From a virus, in IMG/VR virus record IMGVR_UViG_3300036830_000151, positions 1 to 32,430 of that record: a stretch of DNA of 32,430 nt, one strand, 5' to 3'. Below are positions 1,890 through 8,142 of this stretch, in pieces. The notes beneath the pieces were generated by a model that did no database searches, was not told the origin of the DNA, and worked only from the letters and a program-made list of their open reading frames with translations. Made by a program: the position numbers and the translations under genes. Each line of letters opens with the position of its first letter. Positions within the stretch are counted from its first letter, which is position 1.

Positions 1890-2342
1890 TCATTTCGAAA
1901 TAGCCTCCATGCGCTCGATGATTTCCGTTAGCGCATCCCGCTTTTGCCGAAGCGATGCGAGCTCGACCGCGAGCAATCCATTGAAGCCGCCCCCGTGGTT
2001 CATGCGGCCCTTCGATGTAGTTTTTCTTCGGTCGGTCGGTCGGTCGGTCGGTCGGTCGGTCGGTCGGCGCGTTTTTCCGTTTGCGTGCGTTCGCGTGTAG
2101 ATAGTCGGATTCGAGACTTTGTACTTCCCTACCAGATCGGACACCGGAATGCCGGCGTCGCGATCGCGCTGGACGGCGTCCCAATCAACCTCGATTCTTT
2201 TTGGCACTTTGTTCTCCTTTTCGCGCGGCGGCTGGCCGAGCCTGCTCGCGTAATGCCTCTTGCAGAATCCTCGGCCGTTAATCCGATATTCCGGAGCGAC
2301 CAGCCGTCCCGTGTCTTTGCAATCGATACAAAATTCAGGCAA
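1890..2342 (-). CDS. zinc-finger/HTH protein containing a (TDRP)n repeat
   Basis: This 150-aa protein starts at a TTG (2342) with AGGG seven bases upstream and an in-frame stop just before it. Residues 5-31 hold C-x2-C and C-x2-H (CIDC ... FCKRH), a likely zinc site. Residues about 47-85 (WDAVQRDRDAGIPVSDLVGK, then NPTIYTR) look like a homeodomain-like HTH. Then comes TDRPTDRPTDR, encoded by a tetranucleotide repeat, and a C-terminal coiled coil (LLAVELASLRQKRDALTEII). A second good site (AAAGGAGAACAAA before GTG at 2207) could give a shorter HTH-only form. A change of one repeat unit would shift the C-terminal coil out of frame. Probably a DNA-binding regulator. Confidence 0.6.
   Translation of the reverse strand: MPEFCIDCKDTGRLVAPEYRINGRGFCKRHYASRLGQPPREKENKVPKRIEVDWDAVQRDRDAGIPVSDLVGKYKVSNPTIYTRTHANGKTRRPTDRPTDRPTDRRKTTSKGRMNHGGGFNGLLAVELASLRQKRDALTEIIERMEAISK
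2029..2067. repeat. (CGGT)9 tetranucleotide microsatellite
   Basis: There are nine perfect CGGT units followed by CGG, 39 bp in all, inside the gene at 1890-2342. Read on the minus strand (ACCG repeat), all three frames encode cyclic permutations of the same tetrapeptide T-D-R-P, so the repeat itself always stays open. Slippage by one unit changes the downstream frame. This is the structure of phase-variable contingency loci in bacteria. Confidence 0.9.
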
Positions 2343-4003: not shown

Positions 4004-4414
4004 GTGCCTAAATCGAAGCATGCTCCCCGCAAGGCGGACACGGTTAAGGACCGCAAAAAGAGTCAGCTCAACATCTGGCTGGGCAAGCAGAATGGGCCGG
4101 AGATCGATGAACTGGCCGCGCGTGAGCAGAGCCTCACGGGGCGCACCACCACGCGCACTGATTTCGGGCGAGAACTTTTCGTTTGGGCGCTCGATCGCTA
4201 TCGCGAGGCCGGATCGCTTGCCAACCTCAAAGCGCAGACGCCGCAGCGTCCCGTCGCCATGGTAGGTATCTCTCGGGTCAGCGCCGAAACCCAGGAGCAG
4301 ACCTTCACCGGCCTGCGAGTGATTTTCGGAAACGCGCCTTCAAGTGTCATCGAACGCGTCGTGGAATACGTCTCCGAACGCGCGGCGCGATATGCGGAGT
4401 CTTCCCGTGCCTGA
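4004..4414 (+). CDS. small RHH-like or accessory protein upstream of the integrase
   Basis: This 136-aa protein starts at a GTG (4004) with no clear Shine-Dalgarno. The N-terminus is Lys/Arg-rich (PKSKHAPRKADTVKDRKKSQ). It is followed by LNIWLGKQNGPEIDELAARE and RTDFGRELFVWALDRYREA, which could form an RHH-type strand-helix-helix. The C-terminal third ends in a helix (SVIERVVEYVSERAARYA). It diverges from the early operon across an 80-bp control region and overlaps the integrase start by 23 bases, so the two are probably co-transcribed. It may regulate the integrase or assist recombination; this is inferred from context. Confidence 0.65.
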   Translation: MPKSKHAPRKADTVKDRKKSQLNIWLGKQNGPEIDELAAREQSLTGRTTTRTDFGRELFVWALDRYREAGSLANLKAQTPQRPVAMVGISRVSAETQEQTFTGLRVIFGNAPSSVIERVVEYVSERAARYAESSRA

Positions 4415-5519
4415 ACATGCTCCCCAGCGCGGCGTATTCGAACGTCCCAAGGGCTCGGGAATCTGGTGGATCAATTACTACGATTCCGATGGCCATCGGC
4501 ACCGCGAAAAGATCGGCCGGGAGAGCGTAGCCCTTAACGCTTATATCCAGCGGCGATCGGAAGTGAGAGATGGACGCTTCGCGGCGCCGCGATCGGGAAC
4601 GAAACTTAAGTTTCGCGAGCTGGCCGAAGATGCGCTGGCCAATAAGAAGCTCCGCCTGGCGCCGCGCTCCTGGAAAACCGACAAACTAAGGCTCGCCGCG
4701 GTGAAAGAAGTCTTCGGCGAAATGCCGGCCAGCGGGATCTCGCCGGCGAAGATCGAATCCTTCCTGGCCGCACTCCGAGAAAAAGGGCGGTCGACTTCCA
4801 CACTTAATCGCTATAGATCGCTGCTCAGCAGCATTTTTTCTTTCGGCGTGCGCACAGGGAAAAGTAGGACAAACCCGGTCGCCAAAGTAGGCCGGTTCCA
4901 GGAAAACGAGCATCGTGTCCGCTTTCTCAGCGCCGGCGAAGAGGAAGCTTTGCGAAAGGCGGTGCGCGCGATCTCCGCGGAACGCGAGGCCGAAATGGAC
5001 CTGGCGCTTCACACCGGCATGAGGCGAGGCGAGCAATACGGGCTCGCCTGGGCCGACGTTGACCTCGAGCGCGGGATCCTCACGGTTCATGGAAAGACAG
5101 GCCGGCGCTTCGTGGTCCTGAATTCCGTGGCGAAGGACGCGCTCGAAATTCTTTGGGAAATTTCCAACGGCTCAAAGTTCGTCTGCCCGGATAAGCGGCG
5201 GGACGATCAGCAGGATTGGCGGCGATGGTTCGAAGAGGCCTGCGAAAGTGCGAAGGTAGACAATTTTCGCTGGCACGATCTGAGGCATACCTTTGCGTCG
5301 CGCCTGGTGATGGCGGGCGTCGATCTGAGCACGGTGCAGAAGCTTCTCGGGCACCGCTCGATCGTGACGACCATGCGTTACGCGCACCTGTCGCCCGATC
5401 ACCTGCAGTCGGCCGTGGGAAAGCTGGTATCCGCCAACTGGCACCAGGACGGCACCAGAGCGCTGCAGCGTAGGAGCAAAGCGCAGCAAATCCTTCAGTT
5501 TCATGCCACGGGCCCGTAG
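4392..5519 (+). CDS. int: tyrosine integrase, full length
   Basis: This 375-aa site-specific recombinase starts at the ATG at 4392 (a GTG at 4407 or an ATG at 4344 are alternatives). The N-terminus (GVFERPKGSGIWWINYYDSD ... HREKIG) is an arm-type DNA-binding domain. Residues about 70-165 form the core-binding domain and about 175-345 the catalytic domain. All catalytic residues are visible: Arg211 (TGMRRGE), Lys235 (HGKTGR), His295-x2-Arg298 (WHDLRHTF), His321 (LGHRS) and Tyr330 (MRYAHLS). It should integrate and excise the element at the adjacent tRNA-like core. The last four codons and the stop lie inside the tRNA-derived sequence, and the C-terminal WHQDGT codons form one copy of a direct repeat found again beyond the core. 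Confidence 0.95.
   Translation: MRSLPVPEHAPQRGVFERPKGSGIWWINYYDSDGHRHREKIGRESVALNAYIQRRSEVRDGRFAAPRSGTKLKFRELAEDALANKKLRLAPRSWKTDKLRLAAVKEVFGEMPASGISPAKIESFLAALREKGRSTSTLNRYRSLLSSIFSFGVRTGKSRTNPVAKVGRFQENEHRVRFLSAGEEEALRKAVRAISAEREAEMDLALHTGMRRGEQYGLAWADVDLERGILTVHGKTGRRFVVLNSVAKDALEILWEISNGSKFVCPDKRRDDQQDWRRWFEEACESAKVDNFRWHDLRHTFASRLVMAGVDLSTVQKLLGHRSIVTTMRYAHLSPDHLQSAVGKLVSANWHQDGTRALQRRSKAQQILQFHATGP
5438..5456 (+). repeat. left copy of 19-bp direct repeat, possible integrase arm site
   Basis: CTGGCACCAGGACGGCACC matches the sequence at 5642-5660 in 17 of 19 positions. Each copy contains GGCACC twice, 11 bp apart, about one helical turn. The copy lies inside the 3' end of the integrase gene, 53 bp left of the tRNA-like core. 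Flanking an att core with repeated arm-type sites is the known layout of tyrosine-integrase attP sites, but binding here is inferred. Confidence 0.5.
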
Positions 5520-5551
5520 CTCAGCTGGTTAGAGCAGCGGACTCATAATCC
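5510..5551 (+). other. tRNA(CAU) 5'-half fragment; probable attachment-site core
   Basis: GGGCCCGTAGCTCAG opens a segment with the 5' acceptor strand, a complete D-arm (GCTC, loop, GAGC), the 5' anticodon stem (GCGGA), the loop CTCATAA with anticodon CAU, and TCC of the 3' stem. Identity to a tRNA then stops: no variable loop, T-arm or 3' acceptor follows. The anticodon CAU fits elongator Met or lysidine-type Ile tRNA. The 7-base anticodon loop is a usual crossover place for tyrosine integrases. The integrase ends within the fragment. It is not a functional tRNA gene. Confidence 0.8.
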
Positions 5552-5641
5552 TTCGCGCGTGCGTGCGGGATAGTGCGGGAGAAGTAAACAATGCAAATTT
5601 CGAAAATCAGCATGCGGCGCGGAGCGGGAGAGTTCGTCGCG

Positions 5642-5660
5642 TTGGCACCAGGATGGCACC
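5642..5660 (+). repeat. right copy of 19-bp direct repeat, possible integrase arm site
   Basis: TTGGCACCAGGATGGCACC lies 90 bp right of the tRNA-like core. In one frame it encodes WHQDGT, the same residues as the integrase C-terminus, so it could instead be a scrap of a second integrase tail. A further small direct repeat, TGCGGGA twice at 10-bp spacing (5564-5580), lies between it and the core. The stretch 5552-5684 otherwise holds no gene. Confidence 0.5.
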
Positions 5661-5684
5661 GAACTTCATTCGCCGTCCGTTCGC

Positions 5685-5712
5685 TTGACAAACCCAAGCG
5701 CTCGGGTATAGG
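5685..5712 (+). promoter_or_regulatory. rightward promoter of the cargo operon
   Basis: TTGACA (5685-5690, perfect consensus), a 16-base spacer and TATAGG (5707-5712) form a sigma70-type promoter. The -10 ends 9 bases before the ATG at 5722, leaving no room for a Shine-Dalgarno in the transcript, so the first gene is probably leaderless or nearly so. It lies outside the integrase and structural operons and points away from the integrase, consistent with independent expression in the lysogen. Confidence 0.7.
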
Positions 5713-5721
5713 ATTCCGCGC

Positions 5722-5850
5722 ATGAAGAATCCCGCGGCGGTCGCTCTAGGAAAACTCGGTGGATCGGCGAAGAGCGGTCGCAAATCCGCGGCGGCCCGGA
5801 AGAATGGCAAAAAGGGCGGCCGGCCGAAGGCCGCTGAGAGAAAACAATGA
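5722..5850 (+). CDS. 42-aa basic Gly/Lys/Ala-rich protein with KKGGRPK motif
   Basis: The product starts MKNPAAVALGKLGGSAKSGR and contains AARKNGKKGGRPKAAE. Short proteins with the ALGxxGG ... ARKNGxxGGRPK pattern are widespread in bacteria and mobile elements and resemble a minimal AT-hook-like basic tail; their role is not established. It is the first gene after a strong promoter and its stop overlaps the next start (ATGA at 5847-5850), so it is translationally coupled to the membrane hydroxylase. It may act as a DNA- or RNA-binding leader regulator of the cargo operon. That role is speculation; the gene itself is well supported. Confidence 0.65.
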   Translation: MKNPAAVALGKLGGSAKSGRKSAAARKNGKKGGRPKAAERKQ

Positions 5851-6716
5851 TGCTACTCCACCAGATTGTCGGCATTATGGGGGGCAGGATGTGGGCCGCG
5901 TTTTGGCTATTTCTCTTGGTCCTCGGCATCGAGCAGCTGCTCCCGGTCGAAAGAATTCTCGATGGGCCCGGCCTTTTCCTTAATTGCGCGGCAGGCTTTT
6001 TCTATTTCTTCGCGGGGAGCCTGGCGTCCCTGGTCGCGAGCTCCCTGCTCCTACACGTCCCGCTCGGGAGAATTTCGGCCTTCGCCGTTACCGACGGAGG
6101 AGACATCGCAAAAGCCTTGGCGCTTTCTTTCGGCTCTCTGGCCGTGAGAGATTTCTTCTACTATTGGTTCCATCGCCTCCAGCACGGTTCGAAATGGCTG
6201 TGGGCGGAGCATGCCCTTCATCATACCGACGAACACATGAACATCACCACAAGCGTGAGACATCACTGGCTGGAAATGCCGCTAGAGGCGCTCTTCGTGG
6301 ACATACCGCTGGTACTTCTTTTTCGACCCCCGATCATCACGCTTGGCATCGTTGCGTGGGCATTAAGCATGGTCGCGACGACAAACCACATGAACTTCCG
6401 ATTTGGCCTCGGCCGCTTCGGTTGGCTGATAGCCACTCCGCAGCTCCATCGGATTCATCATTCCGCGGCTGAAGAGCACTTCGACAAGAATTTTGCCGCG
6501 TTCTTCCCTTTGTGGGACGTGGTTTTCGGCACCTACTATGCTCCGCGAAAGGGCGAATATCCCGCCACCGGCCTCGCTTCCGGCGAGCGCGTGCGAACCA
6601 TCGGGCAGGCGCTCGTTCTTCCGTTCATCATGTGGAGAAAACTCTGGCGCGCGCGATCGGCGCCCTCGTTGCCCGTGCCTGCCGAGGTCGCGCGCGTTTC
6701 AGTGTCCGCGGACTGA
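5847..6716 (+). CDS. sterol desaturase / fatty acid hydroxylase family membrane enzyme
   Basis: This 289-aa integral membrane protein has hydrophobic segments at about 15-35, 45-70, 90-108 and 150-178. The histidine boxes of the di-iron family are intact: His109-x3-His113 (HRLQH), His122-x2-His125-His126 (HALHH), His139-His140, and His201-x2-His204-His205 (HRIHH). The family uses O2 to hydroxylate or desaturate lipids, sterols, carotenoids or ether lipids; which substrate applies cannot be read here. Finding it between an att site and phage lysis genes is unusual. It may be a lysogenic-conversion gene altering the host membrane, or a host gene captured with the element. It is followed 28 bases later by an Imm-like membrane protein on the same strand. 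Confidence 0.9.
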   Translation: MMLLHQIVGIMGGRMWAAFWLFLLVLGIEQLLPVERILDGPGLFLNCAAGFFYFFAGSLASLVASSLLLHVPLGRISAFAVTDGGDIAKALALSFGSLAVRDFFYYWFHRLQHGSKWLWAEHALHHTDEHMNITTSVRHHWLEMPLEALFVDIPLVLLFRPPIITLGIVAWALSMVATTNHMNFRFGLGRFGWLIATPQLHRIHHSAAEEHFDKNFAAFFPLWDVVFGTYYAPRKGEYPATGLASGERVRTIGQALVLPFIMWRKLWRARSAPSLPVPAEVARVSVSAD

Positions 6717-6744
6717 CGGTCCATTCTGAAAAAGGAGAATCCGG

Positions 6745-7233
6745 ATGAAACGGGGTCTAGCTACCGCGCTCGTGATTGCGGGCCTGGCATTCGTGCTCCT
6801 AGCGTCGATCGAGGTTCGACATCCCGCCGCGATCAGTCCTTCGGTCAGGGCTGCTGCGAATACGATTGGGCCGTCGACGTCGTTCGACGGCTATGGCGCA
6901 GGCGACGCCCTCGGCATGGGAATCATCCTGATCTTGGGTCTGCTTCTCTACTTCCTGCCGAGCATCATCGGAAAGAACAAACGAAATTCTGGCGCGATTC
7001 TCGCCGTGAATTTTTTCCTCGGCTGGACGTTCGTTGGATGGGTTCTTGCACTTGTGTGGGCACTGATGAAGGACGAAGAGGGCGCGCGCGTGATCGTGAA
7101 TCAGACACCGACCGCGGCAGTGCTCTGCTCGAGCTGCGGGAAATATTCAGTCGCCGGCGCGCAATTCTGTCCGCACTGCGGCGGGGGATTTGCAACGAGG
7201 ATAGCCGCCAGCGAAGCGCGGCCGGAGAATTAG
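6745..7233 (+). CDS. Imm-like superinfection-immunity membrane protein with C-terminal zinc ribbon
   Basis: This 162-aa protein has AAGGAGAA in front of its ATG. Hydrophobic segments lie at about 5-22, 55-77 and 86-107. The last pair contains NFFLGWTFVGWVLALVWAL, the signature I know from the phage T4 Imm superinfection-immunity family (a GWT-x2-GWV-x-AL-x-WA core). In T4, Imm sits in the inner membrane and blocks DNA entry of superinfecting phages. The C-terminus adds a zinc ribbon: Cys128-x2-Cys131 (CSSCGK) and Cys142-x2-Cys145 (CPHCGG). Members of this family also occur in bacterial chromosomes with unknown roles, so an exclusion function is inferred from family and location beside attP. 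Confidence 0.75.
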   Translation: MKRGLATALVIAGLAFVLLASIEVRHPAAISPSVRAAANTIGPSTSFDGYGAGDALGMGIILILGLLLYFLPSIIGKNKRNSGAILAVNFFLGWTFVGWVLALVWALMKDEEGARVIVNQTPTAAVLCSSCGKYSVAGAQFCPHCGGGFATRIAASEARPEN

Positions 7234-7270
7234 AGGTAACAAAACACCGAAATGTGCGGAGGCCTTCGAA

Positions 7271-7483
7271 ATGGAATGGATTAAGCTGCCGTCGATCGTG
7301 ATCGTCTCTCATCCCGTAACGCGGATTCTCACGCGGGCTGAGTGCGCAGAGTTGGCGCTGAATCAGTTTGGAGTCGCACTATTGGAGCTTTCGAGGGTCT
7401 CCGAGGAAGGCGCAGAGGCGATGCGGAGGGCGATCGCCGAAATGAGCCGCCGCACATTACCGGAGAGGCCCGCACAAAACTAG
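7271..7483 (+). CDS. 70-aa protein closing the cargo operon, unknown
   Basis: The ATG is preceded by GGAGG at 8 bases. The product starts MEWIKLPSIVIVSHPVTRIL and contains an amphipathic helix (VALLELSRVSEEGAEAMRRA). It follows the Imm-like gene by 37 bases on the same strand. Its stop overlaps, tail to tail, the stop of the recombinase on the other strand (shared CTAG at 7480-7483), marking the right edge of the rightward operon. No family is recognised. Confidence 0.55.
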   Translation: MEWIKLPSIVIVSHPVTRILTRAECAELALNQFGVALLELSRVSEEGAEAMRRAIAEMSRRTLPERPAQN

Positions 7484-8142
7484 GAATTGAGCGGCTTCTT
7501 GCCACGGGCGGCCGCGGCGATCGCCGAGCTGGCCGCGTCATCGCTCACCTTCAGATACTCCCCAGTCGACGAGATCGAGCGATGCCCGAGATACTGCCGG
7601 ACGTTCTCTATTCCTGCCTCCCTGATCGATTGCATGGCGATGGAGTGCTTCAGCACGTGCGGGTGGCAGAGATGCTGCGGCAGGCCGGCTGCGCGGCCGT
7701 AGCGCCGCATGAGGCGGTAGAACTGGAACCTGGTGACCGGGAAGAGCCTCTTTCCGCGTCCATCGCCGCTATGGGCGGTTTTGTGGCGCGCGAGCCACAT
7801 TTCGATGGCTCCGCGCTCGTTCAGCAGCTCATCCGGGTCTTCGACGAGCGGCTGCGTAGTCCGCATCGATCCCTTGAGGCGCTGGATGGTGAGGAAGCCG
7901 TCGGCGAAATGCTCCGGTGTAAGGCTCAGGGCTTCGCTGGCACGCAGCCCGTGCCAAAAGGAGACGAGCAGCAGCACCCAATCGCGTTCACGCGCGGCTT
8001 TGGCTTCGCGAAGCACACTGACGAGCTGCTCGCGGCTGAGATGCTCCACGGGATTCCACGGAAGGAAAGGGGCCGCCCAGGTCGACGGCCAGTCGAGCCT
8101 GGGGAAACTTGATTGGCCCGGCGGGAGTTCCCTTTCGCACAC
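7480..8142 (-). CDS. catalytic-domain-only tyrosine recombinase, HxxR changed to HxxK
   Basis: The product is 220 aa and starts at a GTG. It lacks the N-terminal arm and most of the core-binding domain seen in the integrase. Catalytic positions: Arg67 (HGLRASEAL), Lys90 (RLKGS), His162-x2-Lys165 (HPHVLKHS), His187 (LGHRS) and Tyr196 (GEYLKV). The second catalytic Arg is thus Lys. The compact size recalls FimB/FimE inversion recombinases and dimer-resolving enzymes. It could resolve multimers, invert a nearby segment, drive a second integrative unit, or be weakened. It lies between the cargo operon and the lysis genes, transcribed with the late strand. Confidence 0.85.
   Translation of the reverse strand: MCERELPPGQSSFPRLDWPSTWAAPFLPWNPVEHLSREQLVSVLREAKAARERDWVLLLVSFWHGLRASEALSLTPEHFADGFLTIQRLKGSMRTTQPLVEDPDELLNERGAIEMWLARHKTAHSGDGRGKRLFPVTRFQFYRLMRRYGRAAGLPQHLCHPHVLKHSIAMQSIREAGIENVRQYLGHRSISSTGEYLKVSDDAASSAIAAAARGKKPLNS

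What the first reader, a model, noticed from the sequence alone, without database searches (positions are those of the whole stretch)
5685..7483. Cargo operon beside attP: membrane hydroxylase plus Imm-like exclusion protein under a leaderless promoter
Four genes run opposite to the late operon, with their own TTGACA-N16-TATAGG promoter. They are a 42-aa KGGRPK protein, a sterol-desaturase/fatty-acid-hydroxylase with all His boxes, an Imm-like membrane protein with zinc ribbon, and a 70-aa protein. Both recognisable products act in the membrane. A prophage-expressed lipid-modifying enzyme working with a DNA-entry blocker would be a new kind of superinfection-exclusion or lysogenic-conversion module. 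This is a hypothesis; each gene's family is better supported than the joint function.
Basis: partly seen in the sequence, partly recalled or inferred. Interest (0 to 1): 0.8.

Follow-up and report, generated by a model that had tools for sequence, protein, structure and literature searches.

The report
Prophage envelope-gene cargo beside attP
A temperate virus that probably infects soil Acidobacteriota carries, at the edge of its attachment site, a small accessory operon with a lipid-hydroxylating membrane enzyme of a family not otherwise found in the phage databases searched and a T4-Imm-type protein that probably blocks other phages' DNA entry; nothing shows that the two work together.

Summary
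Four + strand ORFs (5722-7483) follow a TTGACA promoter directly beside a real attP: a tRNA-Met/Ile2 (CAT) 5' half flanked on both sides by matching paired arm sites. Three integrated elements with related integrases in Acidobacteriota genomes show the same int-arm-core-arm layout. The operon is therefore phage DNA at a prophage end. The 289-aa gene is a di-iron fatty-acid hydroxylase (PF04116) with every conserved histidine. The 162-aa gene is a PF14373 (T4 Imm family) protein with three predicted TM helices and a C-terminal zinc ribbon. Sibling phages and an integrated relative carry other genes in this slot, so it is accessory cargo. The hydroxylase is the surprise: PHROGs has no match, the only phage-record hits lie among bacterial genes, and BFVD matches are giant viruses. 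A second prophage (Pararobbsia) carries one beside an O-acetyltransferase, and a Burkholderia locus probably does too. Some Imm relatives sit directly before the tape-measure gene, fitting a block on DNA entry. Best reading: a lysogenic-conversion cassette of two separate envelope functions, expressed from its own promoter and perhaps from the captured host tRNA promoter.

The parts
4344..5519 (+). tyrosine integrase; its stop codon lies inside the tRNA-derived core
   Evidence: PF00589 4e-30, phrog_1 4e-72; 42-61% identical integrases next to intact tRNAs in Acidobacteriota genomes
5439..5456 (+). integrase arm site, int side (TGGCACCAGGACGGCACC)
   Evidence: 94% identical to 5643-5660; 0 of 60 shuffles give such a pair; paired sites at similar offsets in three integrated relatives
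5511..5551 (+). attP core: 5' half of a CAT-anticodon tRNA (Met/Ile2)
   Evidence: 3 mismatches to the first 41 nt of an intact tRNA-Met; displaced 5' tRNA fragments (nt 1-40/46) found at the far end of related elements
5643..5660 (+). integrase arm site, cargo side (TGGCACCAGGATGGCACC), 91 nt after the core
   Evidence: same offset (+93/+105) in the integrated prophage of genome G610
5685..5714 (+). sigma-70-like promoter TTGACA..TATAGG/TAGGAT
5722..5850 (+). 42-aa basic KGGRPK ORF, ATGA-coupled to the hydroxylase; function unknown
   Evidence: no family or database match
5847..6716 (+). membrane di-iron fatty-acid hydroxylase / sterol-desaturase family protein (PF04116)
   Evidence: AlphaFold model pLDDT 89.6 matches viral FA hydroxylases
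6745..7233 (+). Imm_superinfect (PF14373) protein: 3 predicted TM helices + C-terminal zinc ribbon
   Evidence: homologous to T4 Imm
7271..7483 (+). 70-aa ORF with GGAGG ribosome site; no relatives found
7480..8142 (-). single-domain (FimB/E-like) tyrosine recombinase that bounds the cargo slot
   Evidence: PF00589 2e-16; NCBIfam DNA invertase 1e-17, below cut-off; 82% and 71% identical copies in sibling phages L092, L093

Best explanation
The four genes are an accessory lysogenic-conversion ('moron') cassette in the variable slot between the cargo-side arm of attP and the lysis end of a temperate siphophage, probably of Acidobacteriota. After integration the slot becomes one end of the prophage, away from the late operon's start, so it can be transcribed while the phage is silent: from its own TTGACA promoter and possibly by read-through from the host tRNA promoter, which integration leaves upstream of it in the same orientation. 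The Imm-type protein sits in the inner membrane and most likely stops superinfecting phage DNA from crossing it. The hydroxylase most likely hydroxylates a membrane lipid and so changes the lysogen's envelope. The two are separate traits captured in one operon. Shown: phage location, attP anatomy, gene families, catalytic residues, variable slot. Inferred: expression in the lysogen, substrate, exclusion.
For: attP and phage location: arm sites on both sides of the tRNA half; prophage G610 with a 61% integrase, intact tRNA-Met at the int end and a 5' tRNA fragment 37 kb away followed by matching arm sites; two more islands with 5' fragments. Variable slot: L093 has a beta-barrel+PDZ protein and a membrane protein there; G610 only a short ORF. 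Hydroxylase: PF04116 with all invariant His; nearest NCBIfam model is ornithine-lipid hydroxylase OlsE, far below cut-off. Parallel: a Pararobbsia prophage with FA-hydroxylase beside an O-acetyltransferase and a tail-fibre gene. Imm: T4 Imm hits the same Pfam model; relatives lie directly before the tape-measure gene in L004, L007 and phage R656. [quoted passage not shown]
Against: No expression data. No close relative of the cassette exists to show selection. Two of four ORFs have no relatives. No terminator was found after 7483. In other phages the Imm gene lies in late or early regions, not at attP. About 4% of Acidobacteriota genomes also carry PF14373 genes, so the family is not phage-only.
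Confidence: 0.68

Rival explanations
1. One functional module: the hydroxylase changes lipids around the injection site and the Imm-type protein needs or exploits that lipid, so the two together exclude phages.
For: Same operon, both membrane proteins.
Against: The pair was not found anywhere else. The sibling slot holds other genes. T4 Imm acts without a lipid enzyme (own knowledge).
Confidence: 0.08
2. Lytic-cycle genes: the cassette is expressed on infection, the Imm-type protein excluding co-infecting phage as T4 Imm does and the hydroxylase remodelling the membrane for lysis or assembly.
For: T4 Imm is a gene of a lytic phage; Imm relatives sit in late tail operons of L004, L007 and R656.
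Against: Own promoter, strand opposite to the late operon, and placement at the prophage end fit lysogenic expression better.
Confidence: 0.14
3. Passenger genes picked up by imprecise excision from a host chromosome and not yet selected for anything.
For: Nearest hydroxylase is chromosomal in an Acidobacteria MAG (45-48%, tree support 100/99). GC3 of the cargo (0.63-0.71) is slightly below that of most late genes.
Against: Only 45-48% identity to any relative, all catalytic residues intact, ORFs tightly packed with ribosome sites and translational coupling, so not a fresh accident; the arm site lies between core and cargo.
Confidence: 0.1

Closest known systems
Phage T4 Imm (PF14373)
   Same: Homologous two-helix core (YxLP...GW..ALxWA); hhalign 97.6% to T4 Imm
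   Different: 162 versus 83 aa; extra N-terminal TM helix and C-terminal zinc ribbon; attP-side cargo of a temperate phage
Superinfection-exclusion membrane proteins (P22 SieA, HK97 gp15, TP-J34 Ltp)
   Same: Prophage-borne small membrane protein presumed to block DNA injection; P22 SieA is also about 162 aa with 3 TM (PMC10883804)
   Different: Homology to these was not tested here; exclusion not tested
OlsE-type ornithine-lipid hydroxylase and other PF04116 enzymes
   Same: Same superfamily, all His boxes, best NCBIfam model
   Different: 86 bits versus a cut-off of 475; substrate unknown; encoded by a phage
Serotype-conversion cassettes (O-acetyltransferase, gtr)
   Same: Prophage envelope-modifying cargo; one prophage pairs such an acetyltransferase with an FA-hydroxylase
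   Different: Here the enzyme is a lipid-type hydroxylase paired with an Imm protein

Membership tests
PF04116 fatty-acid hydroxylase superfamily | Profile match above cut-off | tested here: met
   98.3 bits versus cut-off 31
PF04116 fatty-acid hydroxylase superfamily | Conserved histidine boxes | tested here: met
   H109,H113,H122,H125,H126,H181,H201,H204,H205 invariant in 44 sequences
OlsE ornithine-lipid hydroxylase | Equivalog score | tested here: not met
   86 bits, cut-off 475
T4 Imm family (PF14373) | Profile match above cut-off, with T4 Imm as positive control | tested here: met
   49.3 bits versus cut-off 27.9; T4 Imm 58.2 bits
T4 Imm family (PF14373) | Blocks DNA entry of superinfecting phage | not testable with these tools
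   needs a challenge assay
Lysogenic-conversion moron | Accessory gene(s) absent from siblings at the same place | tested here: met
   L093 and G610 have other content in the slot
Lysogenic-conversion moron | Own promoter | tested here: inconclusive
   consensus TTGACA at the right place, not measured
Lysogenic-conversion moron | Own terminator | tested here: not met
   no + strand terminator-like site between 7233 and the convergent gene's end
tRNA-targeting integrase of the 5'-fragment type | Element carries the tRNA 5' part and displaces the host's 5' fragment to its other end | tested here: met
   met in relatives G610, G528, G466; the window has the attP form only

The most novel reading that the evidence does not exclude
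Because this integrase family swaps the 5' half of the tRNA, integration leaves the host tRNA promoter pointing into the cargo operon (170 bp away, no terminator seen between). The phage could thus have its conversion genes, including a phage-borne lipid hydroxylase, driven by a strong host promoter only in lysogens.
Probability: 0.25. Interest if true: 0.6.

Novelty: new variant of a known kind. Interest (0 to 1): 0.45.

Why it matters
Lysogenic conversion by lipid hydroxylation is, as far as these searches reach, not described for phages; here it has one clear and one probable parallel in Burkholderiaceae. It points to membrane-lipid chemistry as a target that prophages alter in soil bacteria. 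The attP anatomy also makes a testable claim: a host tRNA promoter switched onto phage cargo by integration.

Tried and rejected
Chromosomal origin of 5553-7483 (host flank of a prophage): rejected by arm sites on both sides of the core and by lysis-TR2-slot-core-int contiguity in both this contig and L093. Conserved hydroxylase + Imm module: tested in about 90 hydroxylase loci, 396 genomes, and phage and IMG/VR searches; not found. Acinetobacter 'phage MD-2021a' hydroxylase: a neighbourhood of ordinary bacterial genes labelled phage. Host by tRNA match in Acidobacteriota: no match at up to 1 mismatch in 199 genomes; the host call rests instead on integrase (46 of 369 genomes at E<=1e-60), recombinase (Tunturiibacter phage) and hydroxylase kin. 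Invertible promoter switched by the FimB-like recombinase: no inverted repeats around the promoter. PDB fold match of the hydroxylase: none significant. KGGRPK protein family: no match anywhere searched. PADLOC: nothing.

Full report
The window is a 32,430-base linear IMG/VR record. The right-hand 24 kb is a leftward late operon of a long-tailed phage: portal, major tail protein, tape measure, tail proteins, endolysin and holin-like genes. To the left lie an Arc-like regulator, an excisionase-like gene and an integrase. The cargo sits between the integrase and the lysis end.

attP. The integrase stop codon lies inside a 41-nt sequence that matches the 5' half of a CAT-anticodon tRNA; a Betaproteobacteria MAG has an intact tRNA-Met with three mismatches over it. 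An 18-nt arm site occurs on both sides of it at 94% identity; no such pair arose in 60 shuffles. Related integrases are common in Acidobacteriota genomes (46 of 369 at E<=1e-60) and commonly adjoin an intact tRNA. In genome G610 a 61% identical integrase ends next to tRNA-Met; 37 kb away, beyond xis-like and other shared genes, lies a displaced tRNA-Met 5' fragment (nt 1-46), followed by arm sites at +93/+105, against +93/+104 in the window. Two smaller elements, G528 and G466, show the same with tRNA-Leu. Both arms on one contig therefore mean attP, and 5553-7483 is phage DNA. 5'-fragment integration is a known minority type (159 of 3919 islands; PMC4383910).

Consequence (inference). In a lysogen, the host tRNA promoter and 5' fragment end up upstream of the cargo, in the same orientation, 170 bp from its first ATG. 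Among the three relatives the first gene at that end is co-directional in G466 and G610 but not in G528, so read-through is possible but not a rule.

Genes. The hydroxylase matches PF04116 at 98 bits and keeps every histidine invariant in 44 homologues. Its AlphaFold model is confident (pLDDT 89.6); in BFVD the named matches at E<=1e-3 are FA hydroxylases or desaturases of giant viruses, no phage protein. PHROGs has no match. Of 50,697 phage records only two match, both 'Acinetobacter phage MD-2021a' assemblies; the one inspected is a neighbourhood of ordinary bacterial genes. In IMG/VR one further case turned up: a Pararobbsia alpina provirus with the hydroxylase between an O-acetyltransferase (phrog_3333, 6e-58) and a tail-fibre gene. 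A Burkholderia locus, L057, has it beside phage-type genes, some only weakly matched. The pattern scan is of limited sensitivity, so these counts are lower bounds. The closest relative of the window enzyme is chromosomal, in an Acidobacteria group 1 MAG (45-48%, support 100/99). The nearest named function is OlsE, which hydroxylates the ornithine of ornithine lipids (PMC3972451), but at 86 bits against a cut-off of 475, so the substrate is open.

The Imm-type protein has the PF14373 core, as T4 Imm does, plus a further N-terminal TM helix and a CxxC...CxxC ribbon; its own model is poor (pLDDT 68.9). In L004, L007 and Pseudomonas phage R656 the PF14373 gene directly precedes the tape-measure gene; in other phages (V6Aob, Nedarya, henriette, T4) it lies elsewhere. 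Tape-measure or ejection proteins are the targets of several exclusion membrane proteins (PMC10883804). This supports a block on DNA entry, by analogy.

Slot variability. Sibling L093 (second recombinase 71%, integrase 54%) has the same order with a beta-barrel+PDZ protein and a small membrane protein in the slot. G610 has only a short ORF there. The content is accessory.

Joint function. A profile of the Imm family found no Imm gene near any other hydroxylase locus. Of 396 Acidobacteriota genomes, 12 matched the Imm protein and 37 the hydroxylase; the one genome with both has them on separate contigs.

Noticed in passing
7480-8142 (-); L092:8064-8627, L093:8070-8624: A second, single-domain FimB/E-like tyrosine recombinase with HxxK in place of HxxR is 71-84% conserved between otherwise divergent siblings, more than the integrase. 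It may act in resolution or inversion rather than integration.
   Followed up: partly
L002:6323-8534: Pararobbsia alpina prophage with an O-acetyltransferase and an FA-hydroxylase side by side between an antirepressor-like gene and tail-fibre genes: a second, independent phage-borne hydroxylase.
   Followed up: partly
L004:7944-11067, L007:7926-11181, L156:3917-7588: PF14373 genes lie directly upstream of the tape-measure gene in three long-tailed phages, a hint of functional linkage between Imm-type exclusion proteins and tape-measure proteins.
   Followed up: partly
L093:9679-10596 (-): Phage-borne outer-membrane beta-barrel plus PDZ protein in the equivalent attP slot of a sibling phage.
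   Followed up: partly
G610 contig C236 (L174, L188, L189) 938-38240: A roughly 37-kb integrated prophage of this integrase group in an Acidobacteriota genome, with both ends marked by tRNA-Met and its 5' fragment; a good reference for the group.
   Followed up: partly
window 2028-2071: Short tandem repeat (TCGG)n inside the early region.
   Followed up: no
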